IMG/VR virus record: IMGVR_UViG_3300021057_000024
Location: 1-38,503 of that record
Strand: one strand, 5' to 3'
Length of the DNA stretch: 38,503 nucleotides
Origin: a virus
Made by a program: the position numbers and the translations under genes. Below, piece by piece: positions 447-36,020 of this stretch (its first letter is position 1; the number at the start of each line of letters is the position of its first letter). Below the pieces are notes generated by a model. That model was given only the letters and a program-made list of their open reading frames with translations, did no database searches and was not told where the DNA came from.

Positions 447-987
447 GCCAGACAAGCAAATAGCGGCCGAAGCCAACGCCGCTATCAACCAGGTCATAAA
501 CCGCACGAAGGACTCAGTCATCATGAAACACTTCAAGCCAGCGATCCGTAAAGCGTTTCCCTTTGGTCCACAGGCGACTCCGCTTGAGCGGACAATCTGG
601 GAAGAGACGGTTGAGCGAGCAATCGCTGAGTTGTCGCGCAAGCTGGCAGCGGTACTGCTGGTGGTGCTGACATTGGCAGTGGTGCCAGTCAGTGCCGCTG
701 AGCCGGTGACTACCGTTGATGGCAAAACCGCCATCGATCCGACAATTCGCAAGAAGTATGACCTCATCCCGGCGGTGAAGGAAGACGGCACCACCGTCTA
801 CATCCTGAAGCCAAAGAGCCGGGTTAGGCGTGTGCTGGCGGCAACCGGTCGCCTGCTCATCAAGTACCCAGAGATGGCATACGACGGGACGCGGCATCAG
901 ATGGTGCTGCATCCGAAAATCGTGCGCGGTCTCAAGTGGGTCAAGGATGGCTTCATCACTTATTGCCAGGTAAAAGCCGGGATGTAA
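439..987 (+). CDS. hypothetical protein with internal hydrophobic segment, 182 aa
   Basis: The function is not recognised. I chose the ATG at 439 because the frame upstream of it only shadows the previous gene, and the two overlap by 8 bases as is usual in this operon. Residues ~66-85 (KLAAVLLVVLTLAVVPVSAA) are a hydrophobic stretch ending in a signal-peptidase-like VSAA/E, preceded by SRK. This would be an ordinary signal peptide if translation began at the in-frame TTG at 631. As annotated, the protein is a soluble N-terminal part of ~60 residues, one membrane segment, and a basic C-terminal part of ~95 residues. The alternative is that a shorter exported product is made from 631. There is a 27-base gap to SSB. 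Confidence 0.65.
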   Translation: MAKPDKQIAAEANAAINQVINRTKDSVIMKHFKPAIRKAFPFGPQATPLERTIWEETVERAIAELSRKLAAVLLVVLTLAVVPVSAAEPVTTVDGKTAIDPTIRKKYDLIPAVKEDGTTVYILKPKSRVRRVLAATGRLLIKYPEMAYDGTRHQMVLHPKIVRGLKWVKDGFITYCQVKAGM

Positions 988-1014
988 CCCGCACCACAAC
1001 AAGGAGAAACGAAC

Positions 1015-1428
1015 GTGATCAATTCAGTAACGCTAGTTGGCAGGGCCGGTGGAGACCCGGAAGCAACGGTCTTTAACAACGGCAATAAAGTGGTGTCCAT
1101 CAGCATGGCGTTGAAGCGCCGTGTCAAGGAGCAGGACCTCACAGATTGGGTCCAAATCAAACTCTGGGGCAAGAGCGCTGATGTTGCCCAGGAGTACATC
1201 AGGACGGGGCATCTCTTTGGCGTGGTTGGAGAGCTGCGCCAAGAGTCGTGGGAGAGCAACGGGCAGAAGCGCTCGAAGCTTGTTGTTAACGCCCAGACCT
1301 TGAAGCTGATGCAGCCCAAGGGCGATGGCGGCAGTTCCGAGAACACCCAGACCAACGACGCTCCGCCAGCAGATGACTACGATCCGTTTGCTGACGACTC
1401 TGCCGACGCTGTAATCGGCTGGGACTAA
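1015..1428 (+). CDS. ssb: single-stranded DNA-binding protein (SSB)
   Basis: This is an OB-fold SSB that coats single-stranded DNA during phage replication and recombination. The family signature is clear: an N-terminal MINSVTLVGRAGGDPE block, then NNGNKVVSISMAL, WVQIKLWGKSAD at ~43-54, and GHLFGVVGELRQESWE at ~64-79. The OB fold ends near residue 105. A short acidic Asp-rich tail follows, with DYDPFADD near residue 120. Bacterial SSBs usually end in an acidic DDDIPF-type tip that recruits partners; here the related motif is ~15 residues from the end and the protein stops at GWD. The start is GTG at 1015, with AAGGAG 8 bases upstream. At 137 aa it is a little shorter than host SSBs. It is followed 6 bases later by the RusA-like resolvase gene. 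Confidence 0.93.
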   Translation: MINSVTLVGRAGGDPEATVFNNGNKVVSISMALKRRVKEQDLTDWVQIKLWGKSADVAQEYIRTGHLFGVVGELRQESWESNGQKRSKLVVNAQTLKLMQPKGDGGSSENTQTNDAPPADDYDPFADDSADAVIGWD

Positions 1429-1434
1429 CCACCA

Positions 1435-1863
1435 ATGGCAATCCAGATAGTAGTCGAAGGAACACCGCGACCAGGCGGAAGCAAAACACCGGGCAAAACT
1501 AAGTCCGGCAAGCTGTTTGTCCGCGATGCCAATCCTTTGACTGCTGTCTGGAAAGCCGAGGTGGCCGACGCTGCCAACGCTCAATACTGGGGTGAGCTGC
1601 TCGACGGTCCTGTCAGTTGCCGCTTTCATTTTCGCTTTGCTCGCCCAAAACACCACTTCAGAAAGAACGGCGAACTCAAGCCCGATGCGCCGCGCTTTCA
1701 CACCATCACACCAGACTTGGACAAGATAGTCCGCTCAACAAGTGACGCGCTGACCGGCATCGTATGGACTGACGATGCGCTGGTATGCAGTCGCGCAGAA
1801 GAAAAACGTTATTGCAATCTGGGCGAGTTGCCCGGCGCCACCGTTACCATCTGGGAAGCCTAA
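1435..1863 (+). CDS. rusA: RusA-family Holliday junction resolvase
   Basis: This is probably a dimeric, metal-dependent endonuclease that cuts Holliday junctions, resolving recombination or replication intermediates before packaging. The diagnostic block is at ~97-122: PDLDKIVRSTSDALTGIVW followed by TDDALV. It matches the RusA pattern in which several Asp residues bind metal. The N-terminus, IVVEGTPRPGGSKTPG, is the usual RusA first strand and substrate loop. At 142 aa it is slightly longer than E. coli RusA. No strong ribosome site precedes the ATG, so it may depend on coupling to ssb, 6 bases upstream. Its TAA stop shares one base with the ATG of the primase-helicase gene. Phage replication modules often pair SSB and RusA. 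Confidence 0.9.
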   Translation: MAIQIVVEGTPRPGGSKTPGKTKSGKLFVRDANPLTAVWKAEVADAANAQYWGELLDGPVSCRFHFRFARPKHHFRKNGELKPDAPRFHTITPDLDKIVRSTSDALTGIVWTDDALVCSRAEEKRYCNLGELPGATVTIWEA

Positions 1864-3857
1864 TGCACGAAGTATTGAGCACCGCGCTGAACTATCGAGC
1901 CTGTGGGTTAAGCGTCATTCCGCTTGAACTTGACGGCTCAAGAAAACCGGCCCTCCGCACATGGGACCCATACACGGCCAAGCTGGCAACGGAGCGAGAG
2001 ATCACTGATTGGTTTCGTGATGGCAACCACGGCATCGGCATCATTGGCGGACCAGTGAGCGGCGGACTGGAAATCATTGACCTGGAAAGCATCGAGATAG
2101 CCAAAGCCTGGCAGCAGCGAGTCAAAGAAGCTGGCGGTGAGGCTTTGCTCAAGCGCCTGCTGGTGGTGAAAACTCCAAAAGGATTCCATGCCTATTACCG
2201 GTGCGACGAGCCCGGACGGAACAAAGACTTAGCCCGGCGCCCTGCGACTGAGGCAGAGCTGGCAGCCAAGCCGGAGCTGAAGTACTACAAACTCATCGAA
2301 ACACGCGGGGACCGTGGCTTTGTAGCAGCGCCTGGCTCGCCACCGGAGACGCACCCGAAGAAGATTCCATACAAGGTGGTCCAGGGCACCCATGAAGCCA
2401 TAAACAAAATCACGATGGCTGAGCGTGAGGTTCTCCTGGATGCGGCCCGCTCATTAAATGAATGGTTTGCAAAGGCATACGCTGAGCCACAGCCGGAGAC
2501 CACCGCCAAAGGCGACCAGCCCGGCGATCTGTTTGAAGCAAAGGCGACCTGGGCGCAGATACTTCAACCTAAAGGCTGGCGACAGAGCGCACCGGGCAGA
2601 TGGGTAAGACCAGGCGGCAAGCGTGACAGCGCTATGGAAATCCTTGGTGGCAAGAAGCTGTGGTGCTTCTCCAGCAGCGTCGGAGAGCTGCCCTTCGAGC
2701 AAGCCGTCAGCAAATTTGCAACCTATGCAATGCTCCACCACGAGGGCAACTTCCAGAAAGCCGCTAAACAACTGGCTGCTGATGGCTTCAAGCCGAAACA
2801 ACCAGAGAAGAAGCAGCGATCCGAAGTGATGGACTTCTCTCCGGAGCAGGAAGAACCGCGCTACCAGTTGCCGACGCTTCAGCTCTCGGATCTGATGAAG
2901 TCTCGCTTCCCGGCTCCCCGCTGGGCAATCGAAGACATGCTCCCCGAAGGTCTGACCATTCTGGCCGGAGCTCCAAAGATCGGCAAAAGTTACATGGCCT
3001 TGGACATCTCAATATCACTGTCGGCGGGTGACCCTGTTCTTGGCCACTACCAAACCAGCCAAGGCGAAGCGTTGTATCTGTCGCTGGAAGATAACAACCG
3101 CCGACTGCAGCAACGCGTTAATCAAATTTCCCCTGACTACGCGAAGACATCCAATAACACCAAGCTCCACCTGTGCACCGAGATTCCAAACATGTCCGAA
3201 GGTGGCATCGTTGCGCTTGAGCAATGGCTGGATAACCATCCTGATTGCCGCCTGGTCATCATCGATACCTTGGCTAAATTCCTGCCACCGAGCGACAACA
3301 AGGCGAATGCTTACCAGGCTGATTACCAAGCGCTAGGCAGACTTCAGAAGCTTGCGCTGAAACATGGAATCGCCCTGGTGGTAGTGCACCACGTGCGAAA
3401 GATGAAGGCCACTGATGTGCTGGATGAGGTCTCCGGTAGTGCCGGCTTCACCGGTGCCGCCGATGCGATCTGGGTACTGAAACGAGCTCGCACCGAAAGC
3501 ACTGGCACCATGCTCATCACCGGTCGAGACGTGGACGAAATCCAACTGTCCGCAACCTTCGATAAAGAAACTTCGAAGTGGACGCTTGATGGTGACGCTC
3601 GGCAGGATGCCCGCCGGAAAACTTTGATTTCGCTATACGGTCAGTTCAGAGAACAACCCTTTACCTACGAAGCTGCAAGGACGCCGCTCAATGGCTGCTC
3701 ACTAAGACACGCCACACGAATTGTGGGCGGTCTCGTTGACAGCGGTTACGCAACCAAGATGGAAGACACATCCACGACTGACACCAAGTTCAAACCGCTC
3801 CAATTCACACTCACTGAGCGGGTACCGGAGTTGCTTCTGGCTGGAGGTGAATCATGA
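1863..3857 (+). CDS. prim-pol primase fused to RepA-like (AAA_25) helicase
   Basis: A 664-residue two-domain replication protein expected to make primers and unwind DNA at the fork. The N-terminal ~200 residues resemble the bifunctional primase-polymerase (archaeo-eukaryotic primase) fold. They have an acidic IIDLES motif near 73-78, TPKGFHAYYR with the conserved His near 103-112, and RGDRGFVAAPGSPPE near 148-162. After a linker of ~120 residues comes a RecA-like ATPase: Walker A GAPKIGKS near 369-376, Walker B VIIDTLA near 464-470, then VVVHHVRK and GSAGFTGAADAIWVLKR. This layout occurs in phage and plasmid replicases. I set the start at ATG 1863, inside the previous stop (TAATG); the frame remains open upstream but only shadows rusA. 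No DNA polymerase gene is visible, so the phage may use the host polymerase or carry one outside the window. Confidence 0.9.
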   Translation: MHEVLSTALNYRACGLSVIPLELDGSRKPALRTWDPYTAKLATEREITDWFRDGNHGIGIIGGPVSGGLEIIDLESIEIAKAWQQRVKEAGGEALLKRLLVVKTPKGFHAYYRCDEPGRNKDLARRPATEAELAAKPELKYYKLIETRGDRGFVAAPGSPPETHPKKIPYKVVQGTHEAINKITMAEREVLLDAARSLNEWFAKAYAEPQPETTAKGDQPGDLFEAKATWAQILQPKGWRQSAPGRWVRPGGKRDSAMEILGGKKLWCFSSSVGELPFEQAVSKFATYAMLHHEGNFQKAAKQLAADGFKPKQPEKKQRSEVMDFSPEQEEPRYQLPTLQLSDLMKSRFPAPRWAIEDMLPEGLTILAGAPKIGKSYMALDISISLSAGDPVLGHYQTSQGEALYLSLEDNNRRLQQRVNQISPDYAKTSNNTKLHLCTEIPNMSEGGIVALEQWLDNHPDCRLVIIDTLAKFLPPSDNKANAYQADYQALGRLQKLALKHGIALVVVHHVRKMKATDVLDEVSGSAGFTGAADAIWVLKRARTESTGTMLITGRDVDEIQLSATFDKETSKWTLDGDARQDARRKTLISLYGQFREQPFTYEAARTPLNGCSLRHATRIVGGLVDSGYATKMEDTSTTDTKFKPLQFTLTERVPELLLAGGES

Positions 3858-5624: not shown

Positions 5625-6296
5625 ATGGACGAGACAAACCTAGACCTCAACCAACTGATTGAATACCTCAAGATGCTGGACCCACAGCTTGTACTGCCGC
5701 ACGGCTTCGCTAACCCTCATTGCTATCGGGGCTGGTACGACGAGCTAGCCTTCGAGCCCGCCGAAAACGTGACCGTTGAATCGATGCTCGCCTGTGCCAG
5801 AGCGGCAGTCGGCAAAACATTCACAGCCATCAAGGGCGGTGATTACACCATGAAGCCCTATACCGACTGCTGGCTTTCGAAGTGGGGCGAGGCAAGCGGG
5901 CAGCGGTTGACCCGCGAATACCTTGAATCACAAGTGCGCATGGTGAGCTGCCAGGTCGCAGAGCTTCAACAGGTCGGGCCGTACACCACGCATGAACAGA
6001 TCGGCTCGCGGTTGAAGGAAGCCCGCGTGAGAGCCGGTCTGACGCAAGGTCAAGCCGCTCGTTTGCTCGGACTCAATCAGGAAAAAATCAGCCTGATTGA
6101 GAAGGGCAAGCGTGAGTGTGGCGTCTTGGAGCTGACAGCGTTCAGTGAAGTCTACGCCGTCAGCTATGAATGGATTCTTGGTCAGTGGTGCGAGTCAGAT
6201 CTACCGGAAGAGACGGTGGCAATGTTCGAGAAGATGCCGCCAGTCGACCGACGGAAGCTGCTTGTTCTGCTGGCTTCGATGGGATCAATGTATTAA
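5625..6296 (+). CDS. phage protein fused to XRE-type HTH domain, 223 aa
   Basis: Two parts are visible. Residues ~20-105 (from HGFANPHCYRGWYDELAFEP to GGDYTMKPYTDCWLS) resemble a small stand-alone protein family common in phages and plasmids and of unknown function. Residues ~128-185 are a Cro/C1-type helix-turn-helix: IGSRLKEARVRAGLTQGQAARLLG, then QEKISLIEKGKRECG. A short tail follows. The HTH predicts DNA binding and transcription control, so this is a candidate regulator of the early operon or of lysogeny. It is not encoded divergently from another regulator as lambda CI and Cro are, and no operator is obvious next to it. The start is ATG 5625 with AGAAGGA upstream. Its stop overlaps the next small gene (TAATG). 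Confidence 0.8.
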   Translation: MDETNLDLNQLIEYLKMLDPQLVLPHGFANPHCYRGWYDELAFEPAENVTVESMLACARAAVGKTFTAIKGGDYTMKPYTDCWLSKWGEASGQRLTREYLESQVRMVSCQVAELQQVGPYTTHEQIGSRLKEARVRAGLTQGQAARLLGLNQEKISLIEKGKRECGVLELTAFSEVYAVSYEWILGQWCESDLPEETVAMFEKMPPVDRRKLLVLLASMGSMY

Positions 6297-6508: not shown

Positions 6509-6946
6509 ATGAGCACCGGACCAGCACGCGACCAATCAGCACACTTCCAGCAACAAGCCGACTACTGGCGCGAAGACTACTGGGCAATGTACGCCAGGAA
6601 GGAAGTGTATGAACAAGCTATGGCCGTCTTGAGCAAGAAAGACTTGCCACCAGATGCAATGGCAGTAATCAAAGCCGCCGCTGATGAAGCTAGCCGCTTG
6701 GGCAATGCACATGCCGACGTGGTTATTAAGCGCGGCAAGCAAGCCAAAGGCAACGAGCCCATGAAAGGTGGCGCAGGTTCCGTGGTATTAGGCAAAGCGG
6801 TTGGACCTGACGGTCAGATCCGCTGTGCGTTTCAACTGCTCAACACCGACGGCTTGCCGCTCGCGTTTCTGGAGATGTCCAGGCGCGAGACTGAAAACCT
6901 CGTGCGCCAATTACGCGGCGCCATTGTCTCAATCTGGGGGATTTAA
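6509..6946 (+). CDS. hypothetical protein, 145 aa
   Basis: Not recognised. Residues 1-80 are largely helical and charged, with a Tyr/Trp-rich patch (ADYWREDYWAMYARKEVYEQA). After a Gly-rich turn (GGAGSVVLG), residues ~92-140 look like a beta-rich domain. There are no membrane segments and no Cys cluster. GGAGG lies ~10 bases upstream of the ATG. Its stop overlaps the next start as TAATG, so it is coupled to the Cys-rich gene downstream. Confidence 0.7.
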   Translation: MSTGPARDQSAHFQQQADYWREDYWAMYARKEVYEQAMAVLSKKDLPPDAMAVIKAAADEASRLGNAHADVVIKRGKQAKGNEPMKGGAGSVVLGKAVGPDGQIRCAFQLLNTDGLPLAFLEMSRRETENLVRQLRGAIVSIWGI

Positions 6947-7320
6947 TGCCGCTGGACCGAAAGACCTGCCGCAACTGTGGAGACTACACATCGTTCTATG
7001 TGCAGCTCGGCTTCAACGTTTACTGCTACACCTGCCATGTACTCATCAAACGCGAGAGCGGCATATTGCTTGCAATGAGAAGTGCATGGAAACCAGAAGG
7101 ACAGACCATGACTGCGACCATTACAAGACACGATCCGATTGCCACCGTCCGCTGCTCGCTTGCGACCTGCGAAGAGGTTATCTATCGAGACACGCTGGAC
7201 AAAGACCCGGGCTTCATTCTCAACGGAATGACCAACCAGCACTTCTGTTCAGAGGCTCACGCACAAGACTATCACGCAGCAATCAAGCGGCTTTCGGCTG
7301 CCTACATGGAGGGCTGGTAG
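6946..7320 (+). CDS. Cys-rich, probably zinc-binding protein, 124 aa
   Basis: Two Cys clusters suggest zinc sites: CRNCGDYTSF...YCYTC near residues 8-29, and CSLATC...HFCSEAH near residues 65-103. The family is not recognised. The start overlaps the previous stop (TAATG). An internal ATG at 7108, with GAAGGA upstream, would give a 70-residue product holding only the second cluster. The frame could therefore be two small zinc proteins joined, or one gene with a second start. The next gene begins immediately after the stop. Confidence 0.65.
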   Translation: MPLDRKTCRNCGDYTSFYVQLGFNVYCYTCHVLIKRESGILLAMRSAWKPEGQTMTATITRHDPIATVRCSLATCEEVIYRDTLDKDPGFILNGMTNQHFCSEAHAQDYHAAIKRLSAAYMEGW

Positions 7321-7575
7321 ATGGAAGGTGGGCTAGGCGTTTGGTTAATCGCCTCATTTGTGCTTGCCGGTACCTTCGGCTGGTGGCACGAAGAGTATCT
7401 CTTCAATAAGAAATACAGGTGTAGAATCTGCGGGCAATCGAAGCAACCATCAGATACGTGGTGCTTCAGTTGCTCCGGGTTCGCGTGGAGTCCAGACGAT
7501 CCACCGGGTCAATACTCGAACAAATGGTCTGGCAGATTTGGTACACACATGACAAAGGAGAAAATTGATGTCTGA
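7321..7575 (+). CDS. membrane-anchored zinc-ribbon protein, 84 aa
   Basis: An N-terminal membrane segment (residues ~6-21, GVWLIASFVLAGTFGW) is followed by a zinc-ribbon-like pair: CRICG at ~34-38 and CFSC at ~48-51. The rest is polar. The ATG directly follows the previous stop, and the C-terminus overlaps the next gene by 8 bases. Function is not recognised. A membrane anchor plus a CxxC...CxxC ribbon suggests a small regulatory or scaffolding role at the membrane, which is inference. Confidence 0.6.
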   Translation: MEGGLGVWLIASFVLAGTFGWWHEEYLFNKKYRCRICGQSKQPSDTWCFSCSGFAWSPDDPPGQYSNKWSGRFGTHMTKEKIDV

Positions 7576-7885
7576 AAATACAACACAAGCGATTGAAACG
7601 ACGGCAGTGGAAGAGTACTTTCCATCGGAAGACTTAGGCTCTCTGCCACGTCAAGGTCTCTTGCATGAAGAAACCGCAGAGCTGGTGGAGGAACTGTTCG
7701 CGTTTCACGCATGGACGCCGGAGATGATTGAAGGCGGGAAGCGAGTACGCGAAACGCTTGCAGATGCCTACAAGGCAATCATCAAGCACGTTCCGCCGAG
7801 CCCGTCTCGCACACGAGCGCTCAACTGCTTGACCGACGCACGCATGTTGGCCAACACGGCCATCACGTTTAAGGGCGTAGTTTAA
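7568..7885 (+). CDS. Acb2/Tad1-hairpin domain protein, candidate anti-defence cyclic-nucleotide sponge
   Basis: A 105-residue protein whose C-terminal ~60 residues match from memory the helical hairpin shared by phage Acb2 and Tad1-associated domains. The order is FHAWTPEMIEGGKRVRETLA at ~43-62, then IKHVPPSPSRTRALNCLTDA at ~69-88, and ARMLANTAIT near 88-97. In that family the block is usually FxYHxPxPEQ..., PPSxxxSxAIRKxxEAVMxANAAIA. Characterised Acb2 proteins form hexamers that bind cyclic di- or trinucleotides made by host CBASS systems, and relatives bind Thoeris signals. They act in the cytoplasm early in infection. The start is ATG 7568 (a TTG sits directly before it), with AAAGGAG upstream. 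It is the last gene of the early operon and converges with the lysis operon, the stops overlapping by 4 bases. The fold match is strong; the ligand is inferred. Confidence 0.78.
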   Translation: MSENTTQAIETTAVEEYFPSEDLGSLPRQGLLHEETAELVEELFAFHAWTPEMIEGGKRVRETLADAYKAIIKHVPPSPSRTRALNCLTDARMLANTAITFKGVV

Positions 7886-8103
7886 AACATGCTGCGGGCT
7901 GCCGCTGAGGGACCACCCTTGGCGGCAACCCAAGCGCCCATTATTTTCTTTGGATCGCCGCTCTCGATGTATTTGTCGAGGGCGGCATCATGTTTGTCGC
8001 AGAGAGAAGCCCACCTGACACCATCTTGACCGAGTTGGTCTTTGGTAGCCGCTTCAGTGCAGCGGCCTTCCGTCTTGCTCATCCAGGTGCAATGAATGAT
8101 CAC
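7882..8103 (-). CDS. hypothetical protein, 73 aa, end of lysis operon
   Basis: A small unrecognised protein with Cys/His residues (IIHCTW, GRCTEA, LCDKHDAALDKYIESG), possibly one zinc site. It is coupled to the endolysin: its ATG lies in the ATGA overlap with the endolysin stop at 8100. It has no signal peptide or lipobox, so it is not an obvious spanin. It is the last gene of the leftward operon and converges on the Acb2-like gene. Confidence 0.65.
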   Translation of the reverse strand: MIIHCTWMSKTEGRCTEAATKDQLGQDGVRWASLCDKHDAALDKYIESGDPKKIMGAWVAAKGGPSAAARSMF

Positions 8104-8690
8104 GAGAACAACTTCAGTTCAAAACCACGTTTAATTACGGCCGCGATACCTAGCTGCTGACTGACAGCGTTCGGATCGTACTTGCCATCAGCCACATACT
8201 TGCCCTTGGTGTAGTGGTTTGTGAATGACCACAGATAGGGCGATTTCACTTCTGGGTGATACTGCCGATAGCCGTAGCCGTTGTAACCTTCGAGCAGGTA
8301 CAAGATGCGGGGAAGCGACCAATCAACTTGCTTGTGCATGCCTGTGAGCTTCAGCGCATCGATAGCACTATCTTCAAAGGTGAATGGTGGGTTGCCGATT
8401 TTCGGATGGCCGGCAGGGACCATTTTCGTACGCGCGGTGAGCGGATCGCCATTGTGCAGGTGCTTCTTGAAGTCAAGCCCACACTCCATCAAATGAATCA
8501 CGCCGACGAACCACCAGGGCATTGTCGAGTTCACTCGTTTGGCGATTGCTTCATAGCGGTCTTGGGATACGGCGATCTGTTTGGCTTTCGCATCTGCCAG
8601 CGATTTGCGATTCTCATGAACCTTGCAAGTGTCAAACAGCTTCTCGTAGTCACCTTTGACTTCAGTCCAGATGATTGGTTTTGCTGGCAT
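8100..8690 (-). CDS. endolysin, COG5526-type lysozyme family
   Basis: A peptidoglycan hydrolase that lyses the host at the end of infection. The signature of the phage lysozyme family is present: WWFVGVIHLMECGLDFKKHLHN near 59-80, where the Glu of HLME is the likely catalytic acid. Then come GDPLTARTKMVPAGHP, PPFTFEDSAIDALKL near 101-115, LYLLEGYNGYGYR near 130-142, and YLWSFTNHYTKGKYVADG near 152-169. There is no signal peptide, so release needs a holin; the candidate gene lies just upstream with a 29-base overlap. Length (196 aa) is typical. The ribosome site is weak (AAGAAGAAAC), consistent with coupling to the upstream gene. Confidence 0.9.
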   Translation of the reverse strand: MPAKPIIWTEVKGDYEKLFDTCKVHENRKSLADAKAKQIAVSQDRYEAIAKRVNSTMPWWFVGVIHLMECGLDFKKHLHNGDPLTARTKMVPAGHPKIGNPPFTFEDSAIDALKLTGMHKQVDWSLPRILYLLEGYNGYGYRQYHPEVKSPYLWSFTNHYTKGKYVADGKYDPNAVSQQLGIAAVIKRGFELKLFS

Positions 8691-9540: not shown

Positions 9541-11457
9541 TTAGGACGCGCTTCTCATGCCCGGTCGGTAACCGCTGATAAAACTTGTGGTGCCAGCAGA
9601 GCCTGCATTACCGCCACTGGTTCCGCCAGCAATCGTGAATGTGGCACCAGTTATAGTGCAAGTGTTGCCAGCCCAGCCAATGACCTTGCCGCCGCCGCCG
9701 CCACCACCATCAGCAGCCGTGCCCGGAGCAGTGCCGCCATTGCCGCCGCTCACGTTGACGGTGATACCATTTGAAAAGATCACATTTCCTCGCGCGATCG
9801 CTGCGACTGTACCGCCGGCACCGCCACCACCGCCGCCGTCACCGCCACCACTAGAGTTTGAGCCAGCAGTGCCGGTTGCCGTAACGTTGGCGCTGATTGT
9901 GATATCACCAGTGGCATTAATCAGCCAGCAGCCACCACCGGCACCACCGGCAGCACCGGCAGAATTTCCGCAGGCGCCGCCACCGCCACCACTGCCACCA
10001 AGAAACATCATGAAGTCATAGACTTGGCCAGCCTTGGCTTTGGCGCTTATGGTGCGCGGATTGCCATCACCACCGGCACCGCCATTAGCGCCGCCACCAC
10101 CACCAACACCATTGCCGGACCCGGTACTGATCCCTCCGTCGCCCCCGCCTTCGCCCTGTCCACGTCGTCCACTTCCACCAGTTCCAGTCCCACCACTGCC
10201 GCCACTGGCTTCAGCCGAGACGGTAACGGCATGGGTTGCTTCCACGCTGACGCTCCCGTTGACATACCAACGGCCACGAGTAACCGTGAAGGCGTTTTGC
10301 GACGTCCAATTGCCGTTGTGGAAATGTTCACCAACAAAGGTAGAGACTGCTGGTGCCGAGGTGGCATCACCGACAAGTCCGGTATCGTCAAGCTGAGCCC
10401 CTGTCGTTGTGCCAATCTTGCCCTGAGTCGCCCCGCCGGTAACGCGATAGATGTCGTAATCAGTGGCGCCCGTGATTGCCGTCCACGTGATTCGGTTGAA
10501 GTTTGCACCGCTAAGTGTGGCGTTCCCCGTGGTCGTTTGACCATTGGCACTGCCTGCGGTGATGGTGCCGCCCCTATCCTTGGCAACCACCTTGTAAGCG
10601 TATGTGGTTGCGCCAGTGGTTCCTTGCGGGGTGACGGTCGGAGCCGCTGGTGTCGTGAGTAGCGGGCGCGTACCATTGCCTAGTGAAGCGTCTCCACCAC
10701 CAGCGAACAAGGACCCTGGTCCCATGACAGTCCAAAGCGATCCGTTGAAGCCTTCGTGAAACCCGGTATCAGAGTTGAACCGCATGTTGCCGGTGGTGGC
10801 TACACGCTGCGCGGTGGTCCCGGCTGGCGGAACCATGCCGCCAGTGCCGGGTACGACTGGATTGGACGCGAGACCTACAGTTACGGCACTGCCAACGGTG
10901 CCAGCCGCAATCTGATTAGCGGTGCCGCTCACGGTTGCGACAGGACCAGCAGAAGCCACCAGGTCCCAGTTAGCCGAAGGTGGAGCGCTGTTCGTGCTGG
11001 AAGCAATTGCATAGTACGCGCTGCCATTGTGCTGGACGGCATCACCGAAGACATAAGCCGTGGTGCTACTCCATGCACCACGCCAATTGATGCCCTTCTC
11101 GGCAAGTAATGTCCAGAGCTCCTGAATGATGAGGATCGCCTTGTCCAGTGCGGCGCCAAGAGCGGCGGTGTTGAACTTTGCCTCAAGCGGAATATTGAGC
11201 AGCTGCGTGCGTGGCGTTTGCCGGTCGGCGAGAACTTTGACGGCAGCGCCAGGCGCGACGTCAAAAGTAATCTGCCCGCCAGGATTGGTTTCCTGATCAT
11301 CGTTTGGCAGAACTGAGACGCCAGCAACCTGCGTTACACCGTCAAGCTTCACGACGATGCCGTGAGCGGTCTCATTAACTGAGAACGTGAAATTGAAGGT
11401 CTTGGTCACCCCGTCGCCTGTGAACTCGTTGTAAGAATGAGTCGTGCTGACCGTCAT
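9541..11457 (-). CDS. tail fibre or adhesin: T7 gp17-like N-terminus, glycine-rich tip, 638 aa
   Basis: A virion surface protein that probably binds the host receptor. Residues 1-~115 match the tail-anchoring N-terminal domain of T7-like fibres (STTHSYNEFTGDGVTKTFNF, then a block with RQTPRTQLLNIPLE). Residues ~120-165 (NWRGAWSSTTAYVFGDAV, YYAIASSTNSAPP) resemble a CBM5/12-type carbohydrate-binding module. A region rich in Thr and Gly around 260-365 looks FN3-like (YAYKVVAKDRGG, ITGATDYDIYRVTGG). The last ~220 residues are extremely Gly-rich with runs of GGGGGG. This resembles the polyglycine-sandwich tip of some phage adhesins. It is followed by no chaperone gene. It sits 2 bases after a second fibre gene with the same N-terminal domain. 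Confidence 0.88.
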   Translation of the reverse strand: MTVSTTHSYNEFTGDGVTKTFNFTFSVNETAHGIVVKLDGVTQVAGVSVLPNDDQETNPGGQITFDVAPGAAVKVLADRQTPRTQLLNIPLEAKFNTAALGAALDKAILIIQELWTLLAEKGINWRGAWSSTTAYVFGDAVQHNGSAYYAIASSTNSAPPSANWDLVASAGPVATVSGTANQIAAGTVGSAVTVGLASNPVVPGTGGMVPPAGTTAQRVATTGNMRFNSDTGFHEGFNGSLWTVMGPGSLFAGGGDASLGNGTRPLLTTPAAPTVTPQGTTGATTYAYKVVAKDRGGTITAGSANGQTTTGNATLSGANFNRITWTAITGATDYDIYRVTGGATQGKIGTTTGAQLDDTGLVGDATSAPAVSTFVGEHFHNGNWTSQNAFTVTRGRWYVNGSVSVEATHAVTVSAEASGGSGGTGTGGSGRRGQGEGGGDGGISTGSGNGVGGGGGANGGAGGDGNPRTISAKAKAGQVYDFMMFLGGSGGGGGACGNSAGAAGGAGGGCWLINATGDITISANVTATGTAGSNSSGGGDGGGGGGAGGTVAAIARGNVIFSNGITVNVSGGNGGTAPGTAADGGGGGGGKVIGWAGNTCTITGATFTIAGGTSGGNAGSAGTTSFISGYRPGMRSAS

Positions 11458-26107: not shown

Positions 26108-27094
26108 CTACCAGTATTTTTTGACCTCAGCCCCGATCTCCTTGAGCTTTTGAAGTTCAGCTTTTGCCGCCTGGTGCTCGGCGCTTCCCTCGCCGTGGTT
26201 CTTCTTGGCAGCCACCACCTTTCCGAAACCTTCTTCGTAACGGTGTTCGTATTCGGCTTTCGTCATGGCGCTTCCGCTATTCGGAACGTCCAAGCTCAAG
26301 CTGTCTTCGCTGATGTACTTTGACGCGAATGAATGGAAGTGCTCTGCGAGGACAACCTTCACGCGAGGATCGAGCTGCTCAAGAATCCCAGCTCTCTCGG
26401 TGCCGAGCGAAGTGGCAAGAGACTTCTCCCAGCTACCCAGAACCTGGTTGCTCTTCTCGCCATACTTTTGCTTGAAGTCGGTCTCCAGCTTTGTGAGCGT
26501 GGCGTCCATCTCGCTATGCTGCTTTTCCAACACGTCCAGCGTGTACTTGTCCAGCGCTTCCGCCATCAACTTGAAACCTTCAGGACGGACGCCAGCCCTC
26601 ATGGCCGCTTCTTTCATAGCGGACAACAAGCCTTCATCCGGCGAGAAGTATTCCTTCAGATGCTCCGGCACTTCGCCAGGCGCTGTGTACTCGTACTTGT
26701 CCGGCGTCTCCGGAACTCCGATGGAGTTGTAGAAAGCCTTCCACTCTTCGGCGGTCGCGCCTTCACCAGGGACCTTGAGCCCGTCCGCTTTTCGTCCGAT
26801 CAGGCTCTGTTGGTTGTCGTGCTCTTTTACGAGTTCGTGCAACGGATTGAGATTCGGATCGGTTGAAAGCCGCTTGTTGAGATTCATCGCCCACTCTTTG
26901 GTGCGATACTCTTCAGGCAGTGTATCGATGAACGATTTGGTTGCGCCGGCATCGGCGGGTGTACCCGGCGTGCCACCATCATTGGTGATTGTCCCGGCCG
27001 TCATCTTGGACAGATCGGTAGGCTTGTTGAGGTCGATCTCAATTGCCACGCCTGCAGGTGTCTGTGTCGGCGTGCTTACTGCTGCATCACTCAT
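26108..27094 (-). CDS. capsid scaffolding (assembly) protein, 328 aa
   Basis: A soluble acidic, helical protein that should guide capsid assembly from the inside. The sequence NGG/GTPADAGATK near 40 is followed by a linker, then helical stretches around 80-200 (LHELVKEHDNQQSLIGRKAD, EALDKYTLDVLEKQHSEM) and a Lys-rich end. The C-terminus (AKAELQKLKEIGAEVKKYW) resembles the helix-loop-helix that binds the capsid in scaffolds. The gene lies directly before the capsid gene, as usual. It starts 8 bases inside the end of the 105-aa gene. Confidence 0.75.
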   Translation of the reverse strand: MSDAAVSTPTQTPAGVAIEIDLNKPTDLSKMTAGTITNDGGTPGTPADAGATKSFIDTLPEEYRTKEWAMNLNKRLSTDPNLNPLHELVKEHDNQQSLIGRKADGLKVPGEGATAEEWKAFYNSIGVPETPDKYEYTAPGEVPEHLKEYFSPDEGLLSAMKEAAMRAGVRPEGFKLMAEALDKYTLDVLEKQHSEMDATLTKLETDFKQKYGEKSNQVLGSWEKSLATSLGTERAGILEQLDPRVKVVLAEHFHSFASKYISEDSLSLDVPNSGSAMTKAEYEHRYEEGFGKVVAAKKNHGEGSAEHQAAKAELQKLKEIGAEVKKYW

Positions 27095-27404
27095 CTGTGT
27101 CTTCTCCCTGGCTATTCGCCATCACTTGCATTGCCTCTAACATCTCACGGACTTGCTGGTGGCGCTGGCGAAGCTGCTGGTACTCAATCAAGGGCAGCTT
27201 CTCCACCGGAATGAACTGCTGAAGCGTCAACCAGATATCCCGCCTGGCCGCCTGCTCCATATCCATGCAGGGGTTACCGGCTCCGCATATTCGATGAAGA
27301 TACTGAAGCAGAGAAATGCCAGCGTCGTGCCTGCACACCTCCTGCATCATGTTGTATTTTTCAACGTAAGCGTCGTCTATCTCAGGAAGCTGCTGCTCCG
27401 CCAA
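27087..27404 (-). CDS. hypothetical protein between portal and scaffold, 105 aa
   Basis: An unrecognised helical protein, with several Met/Gln-rich stretches (YQQLRQRHQQVREMLEAMQV) and one C-x-(n)-C pair. The best start is TTG 27404, since AAGGAGTG lies 8 bases upstream; the next in-frame Met is at residue 19. It overlaps the portal end by 23 bases and the scaffold start by 8. Its place and coiled-coil character suggest a head-assembly factor. Confidence 0.6.
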   Translation of the reverse strand: MAEQQLPEIDDAYVEKYNMMQEVCRHDAGISLLQYLHRICGAGNPCMDMEQAARRDIWLTLQQFIPVEKLPLIEYQQLRQRHQQVREMLEAMQVMANSQGEDTDE

Positions 27405-35396: not shown

Positions 35397-36020
35397 GTGA
35401 CACCTGCAAACATTTCCAAGGACATCAAGACGGCTGCTATCTACTGCCGTGTATCCACCGACGACCAAGACTGTGAGCGCCAGGTCCGAGACCTTACCGC
35501 CTTCGCCCAACGCTGTGGGTACCAGGTGATAGACGCGCATATATTTAGAGAGACCGCCTCCGGAAAGAAGACGACCAGACAAGTGCGCAATCTGGTGCTC
35601 CAACTAGCCCAAGCTCGCAAGATTGATGTCATCCTGGTGACTGAGCTCACGAGATGGGGACGTAACACAGTGGACCTGCTCAGTACCTTGCAGACTCTGA
35701 ACGAGTATGGAGTCTCCATCGTTGCTGAACGTGGTGTTCAGTTCGATCTGGGGACAGCACAGGGCAAGATGATAGCTGGCTTCATGGCCGTGTTGGCTGA
35801 GTTTGAAGCGAACCTGCTATCAGAGCGCACCAAGAGCGGTATGGCTACAGCCAGAGCCCGTGGTAAACACATTGGGAGACCGAAGGGCAACCGCACAGTA
35901 GGCAAACATCAGAAGGCTGTGAAGGAGCTAACCAGCCTTGGATTCAGTATCAGAGACATTGCAAGCAAGCTGAAGATAGGCAAAGAAACCGTGATGGCAT
36001 GCCAGCGAGCCGCCATCTGA
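35397..36020 (+). CDS. serine recombinase (resolvase/invertase family), 207 aa
   Basis: A site-specific recombinase that cuts and rejoins DNA through an active-site Ser. AAIYCRVSTDDQDCERQV near 13-30 holds the catalytic Ser in YxRVSTxDQ. ELTRWGRNTVDLLSTLQTL near 82-100 holds the conserved Arg residues (RxxR-type). GKMIAGFMAVLAEFEANLLS and ERTKSGMATARARGKHIGRP follow, the resolvase C-terminal helix and GRP hinge. The end (LGFSIRDIASKLKIGKETVM near 179-198) is the DNA-binding HTH. The size is that of small resolvases and invertases, not of the large phage integrases. The start is GTG 35397 with GGAG 8 bases upstream. It could act in dimer resolution, inversion of a segment or lysogenic integration. 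Confidence 0.92.
   Translation: MTPANISKDIKTAAIYCRVSTDDQDCERQVRDLTAFAQRCGYQVIDAHIFRETASGKKTTRQVRNLVLQLAQARKIDVILVTELTRWGRNTVDLLSTLQTLNEYGVSIVAERGVQFDLGTAQGKMIAGFMAVLAEFEANLLSERTKSGMATARARGKHIGRPKGNRTVGKHQKAVKELTSLGFSIRDIASKLKIGKETVMACQRAAI

What the first reader, a model, noticed from the sequence alone, without database searches (positions are those of the whole stretch)
7568..7885. Probable Acb2/Tad1-family anti-defence protein
The C-terminal hairpin pattern (FHAWTPEM, then PPSPSRTRALNCL, then ANTAIT) matches the phage proteins that soak up cyclic nucleotide signals of CBASS and relatives that act against Thoeris. The N-terminal ~40 residues look different from common forms, so ligand choice could be new.
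Basis: partly seen in the sequence, partly recalled or inferred. Interest (0 to 1): 0.72.

Follow-up and report, generated by a model that had tools for sequence, protein, structure and literature searches.

The report
Divergent Acb2/Tad1-type phage sponge gene
A small gene in a probably temperate phage of Melainabacteria encodes a distant relative of the phage proteins that mop up bacterial alarm molecules, so it is probably a counter-defence gene of a known kind with an unusually remodelled sequence, but its function is untested.

Summary
Window 7568-7885 (+) is a well-formed 105-codon gene, and all three quoted motifs are present. The family call also holds, but only after building a profile from undisputed members. 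Pfam's Acb2/Tad1 hairpin model (PF24729) scores the protein below its cut-off (13.7 vs 27 bits). A profile of nine undisputed members detects it at E = 2e-6, while the best of 9,000 shuffles reaches 11 bits. Profile-profile comparison gives E = 2e-6. The predicted fold is the two-helix hairpin, and its best viral structural neighbours are mostly 'Acb2/Tad1 hairpin' proteins. Close relatives exist in another viral contig (62% identity) and in a prophage within a Candidatus Obscuribacterales chromosome (55%) that shares terminase and portal with the window phage. The host order carries CBASS operons, including a NucC type, so a target is plausible. Better evidence is a set of consistent substitutions at near-invariant hairpin positions, some matching ligand-affecting residues of T4 Acb2. 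Best reading: a phage sponge for cyclic-nucleotide signals, homology shown, function inferred; a divergent branch of a known kind.

The parts
7568..7885 (+). Gene for a 105-aa Acb2/Tad1-hairpin-type protein
   Evidence: ORF; coding selection; homology; fold; fold neighbours
7697..7870 (+). Hairpin domain, residues 44-101 (FAFHAWTP...AITF), predicted helices 51-74 and 79-100, pLDDT about 85-89 over most of it
7568..7696 (+). N-terminal segment, residues 1-43: residues 1-31 predicted disordered (low confidence, 3-sequence alignment), helix 34-43. About 59% identical to L011 over QAIETTAVEEYFPSEDLGSLPR; largely absent from L005
7555..7561 (+). Shine-Dalgarno-like AAAGGAG about 6-7 nt upstream of the ATG
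   Evidence: read from sequence
6509..7575 (+). Three tightly packed upstream ORFs (6509-6946, 6946-7320, 7321-7575), likely one transcription unit with the gene; the last two have CxxC zinc-ribbon-like motifs with only weak profile matches

Best explanation
The gene encodes a small phage accessory protein that folds as the Acb2/Tad1 helical hairpin, assembles into an oligomer, and sequesters (without cleaving) a cyclic-nucleotide or related alarm molecule made by a host defence such as CBASS or Thoeris. This keeps the defence effector switched off during infection. Shown here: a real coding gene, homology to the hairpin superfamily, a predicted hairpin fold, presence in phages of differing backbone and at differing positions, and CBASS operons in the likely host order. 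Inferred: oligomerisation, ligand binding and counter-defence function. Unknown: which ligand.
For: Homology: phrog_1454 E 1.7e-4; undisputed PF24729 proteins hit the same PHROG at up to 4e-31. Profile of nine PF24729 members: E 2e-6 with shuffle controls. hhalign E 2.1e-6, 66 gap-free columns, with column-shuffle controls. The same nine-member profile finds PDB chains named Acb2 homolog 43 (9ptq, E 2.6e-8) and Tad1 (7uav and others, E about 3e-4), and T4 Vs.4/Acb2 (7uq2) only weakly, E 0.28; the T4-type group is linked to it by hhalign E 7e-7. Fold: AlphaFold2 model with two long helices at 51-74 and 79-100. Foldseek against viral models: the top hit and over half of the top 20 are named Acb2/Tad1 hairpin proteins, probability mostly 0.9 to 1.0. 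Residue mapping through: T4 Acb2 Tyr8 (needed for dinucleotide binding, PMC12657218) corresponds to Phe46, and T4 Lys23 to Arg61. Accessory distribution: the L005 prophage is 64% and 60% identical in terminase and portal but has the gene between recombinase and terminase, whereas the window has it between early and tail/lysis genes; of the window genes, only this one matches the 16 kb held of L011. Host: bacterial genes lie at both ends of the L005 contig; 6 of 53 genomes of that order carry SMODS cyclases, with 2TM, 4TM or NucC effectors adjacent; 3 of 53 carry ThsB-TIR.
Against: The Pfam score is below the curated cut-off, and the L005 homologue does not reach PF24729 at E 1. Direct profile comparison with the T4-type Acb2 group is not significant. 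Near-invariant family positions are replaced in all three subfamily members (R79->P, E80->S/T, L83->R, T86->N, E89->T, W94->L), including the position of T4 Thr68, where T68M lowers binding (PMC12657230). Foldseek E-values are above 0.05 and no Acb2/Tad1 chain is listed among PDB matches of the model. Most PF24729 proteins have, to my knowledge, never been assayed. No cyclase was found in the one genome that holds the related prophage.
Confidence: 0.66

Rival explanations
1. The hairpin fold is retained but repurposed: the protein is an oligomeric phage factor (for example a regulator or assembly factor) that binds no nucleotide signal.
For: Consistent replacement of near-invariant family residues in all three members, with a conserved motif of its own (PxPxRTRALNxLTDxRML without a gap). 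It lies downstream of a HTH protein and of zinc-ribbon-like ORFs. Most family members are untested.
Against: Patchy distribution and changed location between related phages fit an accessory counter-defence gene better than a core role. An aromatic residue at the T4 Tyr8 position is kept in all three members and an arginine at the T4 Lys23 position in two of three.
Confidence: 0.22
2. It acts specifically as a Tad1-type protein, binding gcADPR of Thoeris through an N-terminal domain plus the hairpin.
For: The N-terminal segment is about as long (43 aa) as the part of solved Tad1 chains that precedes the hairpin. ThsB-TIR genes occur in 3 of 53 genomes of the host order.
Against: No strand is predicted in residues 1-43 (low confidence there). 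The L005 homologue has only about 26 residues before the hairpin, which seems too short for the Tad1 sheet.
Confidence: 0.07
3. A chance helical hairpin with no relation to Acb2/Tad1.
For: Sub-threshold Pfam score. Helical hairpins are common, and PDB structural matches are unspecific.
Against: Sequence-profile statistics with shuffle and column-shuffle controls; gap-free alignment over the entire hairpin.
Confidence: 0.03

Closest known systems
Pfam PF24729 / PHROG 1454 small phage hairpin proteins (for example Lactococcus phage CHPC971 gp67, Paenibacillus phage Sitara gp67, a Deinococcus sp. QL22 plasmid protein)
   Same: Hairpin alignable without gaps; F44, P76, A84, L88, M93, N96 kept in all three subfamily members, H47 and R61 in two of three; small early-region or accessory gene
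   Different: Below Pfam cut-off; P49->W, R79->P, E80->S/T, L83->R, T86->N, E89->T, W94->L and R101->F in all three subfamily members
Acb2 (T4 Vs.4; Pseudomonas phage p26/gp24)
   Same: Short N-terminus plus two long antiparallel helices; aromatic at the T4 Tyr8 position (Phe46), basic residue at the T4 Lys23 position (Arg61)
   Different: No direct significant profile match; T4 Thr68->Asn86, T4 Phe82->Thr100; the position of Acb2 Arg67 (trinucleotide contact, own recollection) is Pro79
Tad1 (Clostridium botulinum prophage Tad1, 7uav; 8kbb series)
   Same: Shares the C-terminal hairpin family
   Different: No predicted N-terminal beta sheet; N-terminus shortened in the L005 relative

Membership tests
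Acb2/Tad1 hairpin superfamily (homology) | Statistically significant sequence homology to undisputed members over the whole hairpin | tested here: met
   26.8 bits, E 2e-6, against 9,000 shuffles; hhalign E 2.1e-6 with column-shuffle control
Acb2/Tad1 hairpin superfamily (homology) | Two long antiparallel helices in the hairpin region | tested here: met
   Predicted helices 51-74 and 79-100, pLDDT 85-89 over most blocks; prediction only
Pfam family PF24729 as curated | Whole-protein score at or above the curated cut-off (27 bits) | tested here: not met
   13.7 bits; hence described as a divergent relative outside the Pfam boundary
Acb2 | Direct profile similarity to the T4/slopekvirus Acb2 group | tested here: not met
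   hhalign E 0.14; linked only through intermediate family members
Acb2 | Dinucleotide-pocket residues (T4 Tyr8, Lys23, Thr68, Phe82 positions) | tested here: inconclusive
   Phe46 and Arg61 conservative; Asn86 and Thr100 changed
Acb2 | Homohexamer that binds cyclic di- and trinucleotides | not testable with these tools
   Needs biochemistry or complex modelling
Tad1 | N-terminal beta sheet before the hairpin | tested here: inconclusive
   No strands predicted, but residues 1-31 have pLDDT below 50 with only three sequences; L005 N-terminus seems too short
Tad1 | gcADPR binding | not testable with these tools
   Needs biochemistry

The most novel reading that the evidence does not exclude
The subfamily is a sponge whose hairpin pocket was rebuilt for a different defence signal: Pro79, Arg83, Asn86, Thr89, Arg92 and Leu94 replace the residues that the rest of the family keeps almost without exception. 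It would be tuned to signals of Melainabacterial CBASS or of another system and bind something that tested Acb2/Tad1 proteins do not.
Probability: 0.25. Interest if true: 0.62.

Novelty: new variant of a known kind. Interest (0 to 1): 0.38.

Why it matters
It extends the hairpin sponge superfamily to phages of Candidatus Obscuribacterales (Melainabacteria), a group with little known phage biology, and shows that standard models miss divergent members. If the substitutions reflect a new ligand, the protein would be a probe for an uncharacterised nucleotide signal. As a plain homologue it is an ordinary, useful annotation.

Tried and rejected
A single-protein search for relatives found nothing in viral contigs or annotated phages, and one weak plasmid hit that proved to be a canonical-looking hairpin protein beside a terminase gene. 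NCBIfam and PADLOC gave no match. PDB sequence search with the protein or its 3-row profile gave only unrelated low-scoring chains. PDB fold search returned unspecific helical bundles; no Acb2/Tad1 chain is listed there, which is not evidence against the family given a middling model. A search of 292 genomes of the phylum found only the one Obscuribacterales prophage copy. The window's primase found no relatives in viral contigs or in the L011 record. An alignment of nine canonical members was too diverse for a collection scan, so five were used. Equating the conserved family arginine with window Arg81 was considered; it needs a two-residue shift in the helix, and the gap-free alignment puts Pro79 there.

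Full report
Observation. The ORF at 7568-7885 (+) starts with ATG, has an AAAGGAG site just upstream, ends with TAA and encodes 105 residues. The start overlaps the upstream ORF (7321-7575) by 8 nt, and 6509-6946, 6946-7320 and 7321-7575 follow each other without gaps, so the gene is probably the last of a small early operon (inference from layout). A convergent ORF (7882-8103, - strand) ends at its stop codon. Against the L011 homologue the third codon position is far less conserved (0.36) than the first two (0.72, 0.73).

Homology. Pfam-A gives one sub-threshold match, Acb2_Tad1_hairpin (E 0.075, 13.7 bits against a cut-off of 27; residues 47-100 on profile 3-57). PHROG 1454 matches at 1.7e-4. 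To test this without relying on thresholds, I collected nine proteins from phages and genomes that all match PF24729. Their profile detects the window protein at E 2e-6 and both its close relatives, against a best of 11.0 bits for 9,000 shuffles, and no other window ORF. Profile-profile comparison of the three-member subfamily with these nine gives E 2.1e-6 with 66 gap-free columns; the score of 39.1 compares with at most 18.0 in 200 column-shuffled controls and 12.2 for the reversed profile. The nine-member profile finds PDB sequences named Acb2 homolog 43 and Tad1, and T4 Vs.4 weakly, which ties the group to experimentally studied sponges. The direct comparison with the T4-type Acb2 group is not significant; the link runs through the intermediate members.

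Fold. AlphaFold2 with three sequences predicts helices 34-43, 51-74 and 79-100; the hairpin has pLDDT near 85-89 and residues 1-31 are below 50. Foldseek against viral models ranks an Acb2/Tad1 hairpin protein first, and over half of the top 20 carry that name, though with E-values above 0.05. PDB matches are generic helical bundles and carry no weight either way.

Relatives, phage and host. One relative is in IMG/VR contig 3300010373_000016 (L011, 62% identity, N-terminus included). Of the window genes, only this one matched the 16 kb held of that contig, and the window primase found nothing in the whole record, which points to a different phage backbone. The other relative is in a prophage of a Candidatus Obscuribacterales MAG (L005, 55%). 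The L005 prophage is a relative of the window phage: terminase 64%, portal 60%, the protein at 26111-27121 50%, serine recombinase 55%. Its contig has bacterial genes at both ends (UvrD, histidine kinase, glycosyltransferases, TolC-like OEP, ABC transporter), and a second genome of the order has a portal 69% identical over its preserved part. The window phage is therefore most likely a temperate podovirus-like phage of that order (inference). The gene sits at a different place in the two related phages: beside the recombinase in L005, between early genes and the tail/lysis region in the window. This is the behaviour of a mobile accessory gene.

Likely target. Of 53 genomes in the order, 6 have SMODS-type cyclases, and the neighbours tested at these loci match CBASS effectors (2TM, 4TM and NucC). 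Three genomes have ThsB-TIR. NucC effectors respond to cyclic trinucleotides (established knowledge). Signals that Acb2/Tad1 proteins can bind therefore plausibly occur in the host group. No cyclase of this family was found in G001, the genome with the related prophage.

Residues. In T4 Acb2, Y8A disrupts cyclic dinucleotide binding and F82C diminishes binding (PMC12657218), and T68M is described as decreasing affinity (PMC12657230). Through these positions map to window Phe46, Thr100 and Asn86. Lys23 of T4 (the counterpart of PaMx33 Lys26, from my own knowledge) maps to Arg61. Across 68 distinct viral homologues plus nine others, the family nearly always has Tyr at the Phe46 position, Arg at 61, Arg at 79, Glu at 80, Thr at 86, Glu at 89 and Trp at 94; the Glu89-Trp94 frequencies are inflated, because those loci were found with a pattern that required them. 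The subfamily keeps an aromatic residue at 46 in all three members and Arg at 61 in two of three, but has Pro79, Ser/Thr80, Arg83, Asn86, Thr89 and Leu94. This may mean altered ligand choice or altered packing; the data do not separate these.

Mechanism. Best supported is sequestration of a nucleotide alarm signal by an oligomer of hairpins. Homology is shown, the fold is predicted, and oligomer, ligand and counter-defence effect are inferred. The main rival is reuse of the fold for a non-sponge role. The N-terminal segment is conserved between the window protein and L011 but mostly missing in L005, so it is not essential to the subfamily, and it is not in itself evidence for a new ligand.

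Verdict. The finding is real and the family assignment is right at superfamily level; function is probable but untested. It is a divergent branch of a known kind.

Noticed in passing
window 35397-36020 (+): Serine recombinase ORF about 55% identical to the recombinase of the Obscuribacterales prophage L005; suggests the window phage is temperate.
   Followed up: partly
window 8100-8690 (-): 196-aa protein with no Pfam match at E 1 and only a very weak PHROG match; its position between the tail-fibre region and the early genes suggests a lysis enzyme, but nothing was shown.
   Followed up: no
window 5625-6293 (+): Two-domain protein: N-terminal phrog_12889 region of unknown function fused to a HTH repressor-like domain.
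   Followed up: no
window 9541-11457 (-): 638-aa tail-fibre-like protein with a long glycine-rich stretch; the proline-rich ORFs antisense to it are by-products.
   Followed up: no
L024 (genome of the likely host order) 486-3053 (-): Two adjacent ORFs that both match CBASS cyclase models, followed by a 2TM effector: an unusual tandem-cyclase locus.
   Followed up: partly
L023 3980-4180 (Deinococcus sp. QL22 plasmid unnamed8): Canonical-looking Acb2/Tad1 hairpin protein annotated only as hypothetical, on a plasmid about 1 kb from a terminase small subunit gene, perhaps a phage-plasmid.
   Followed up: partly
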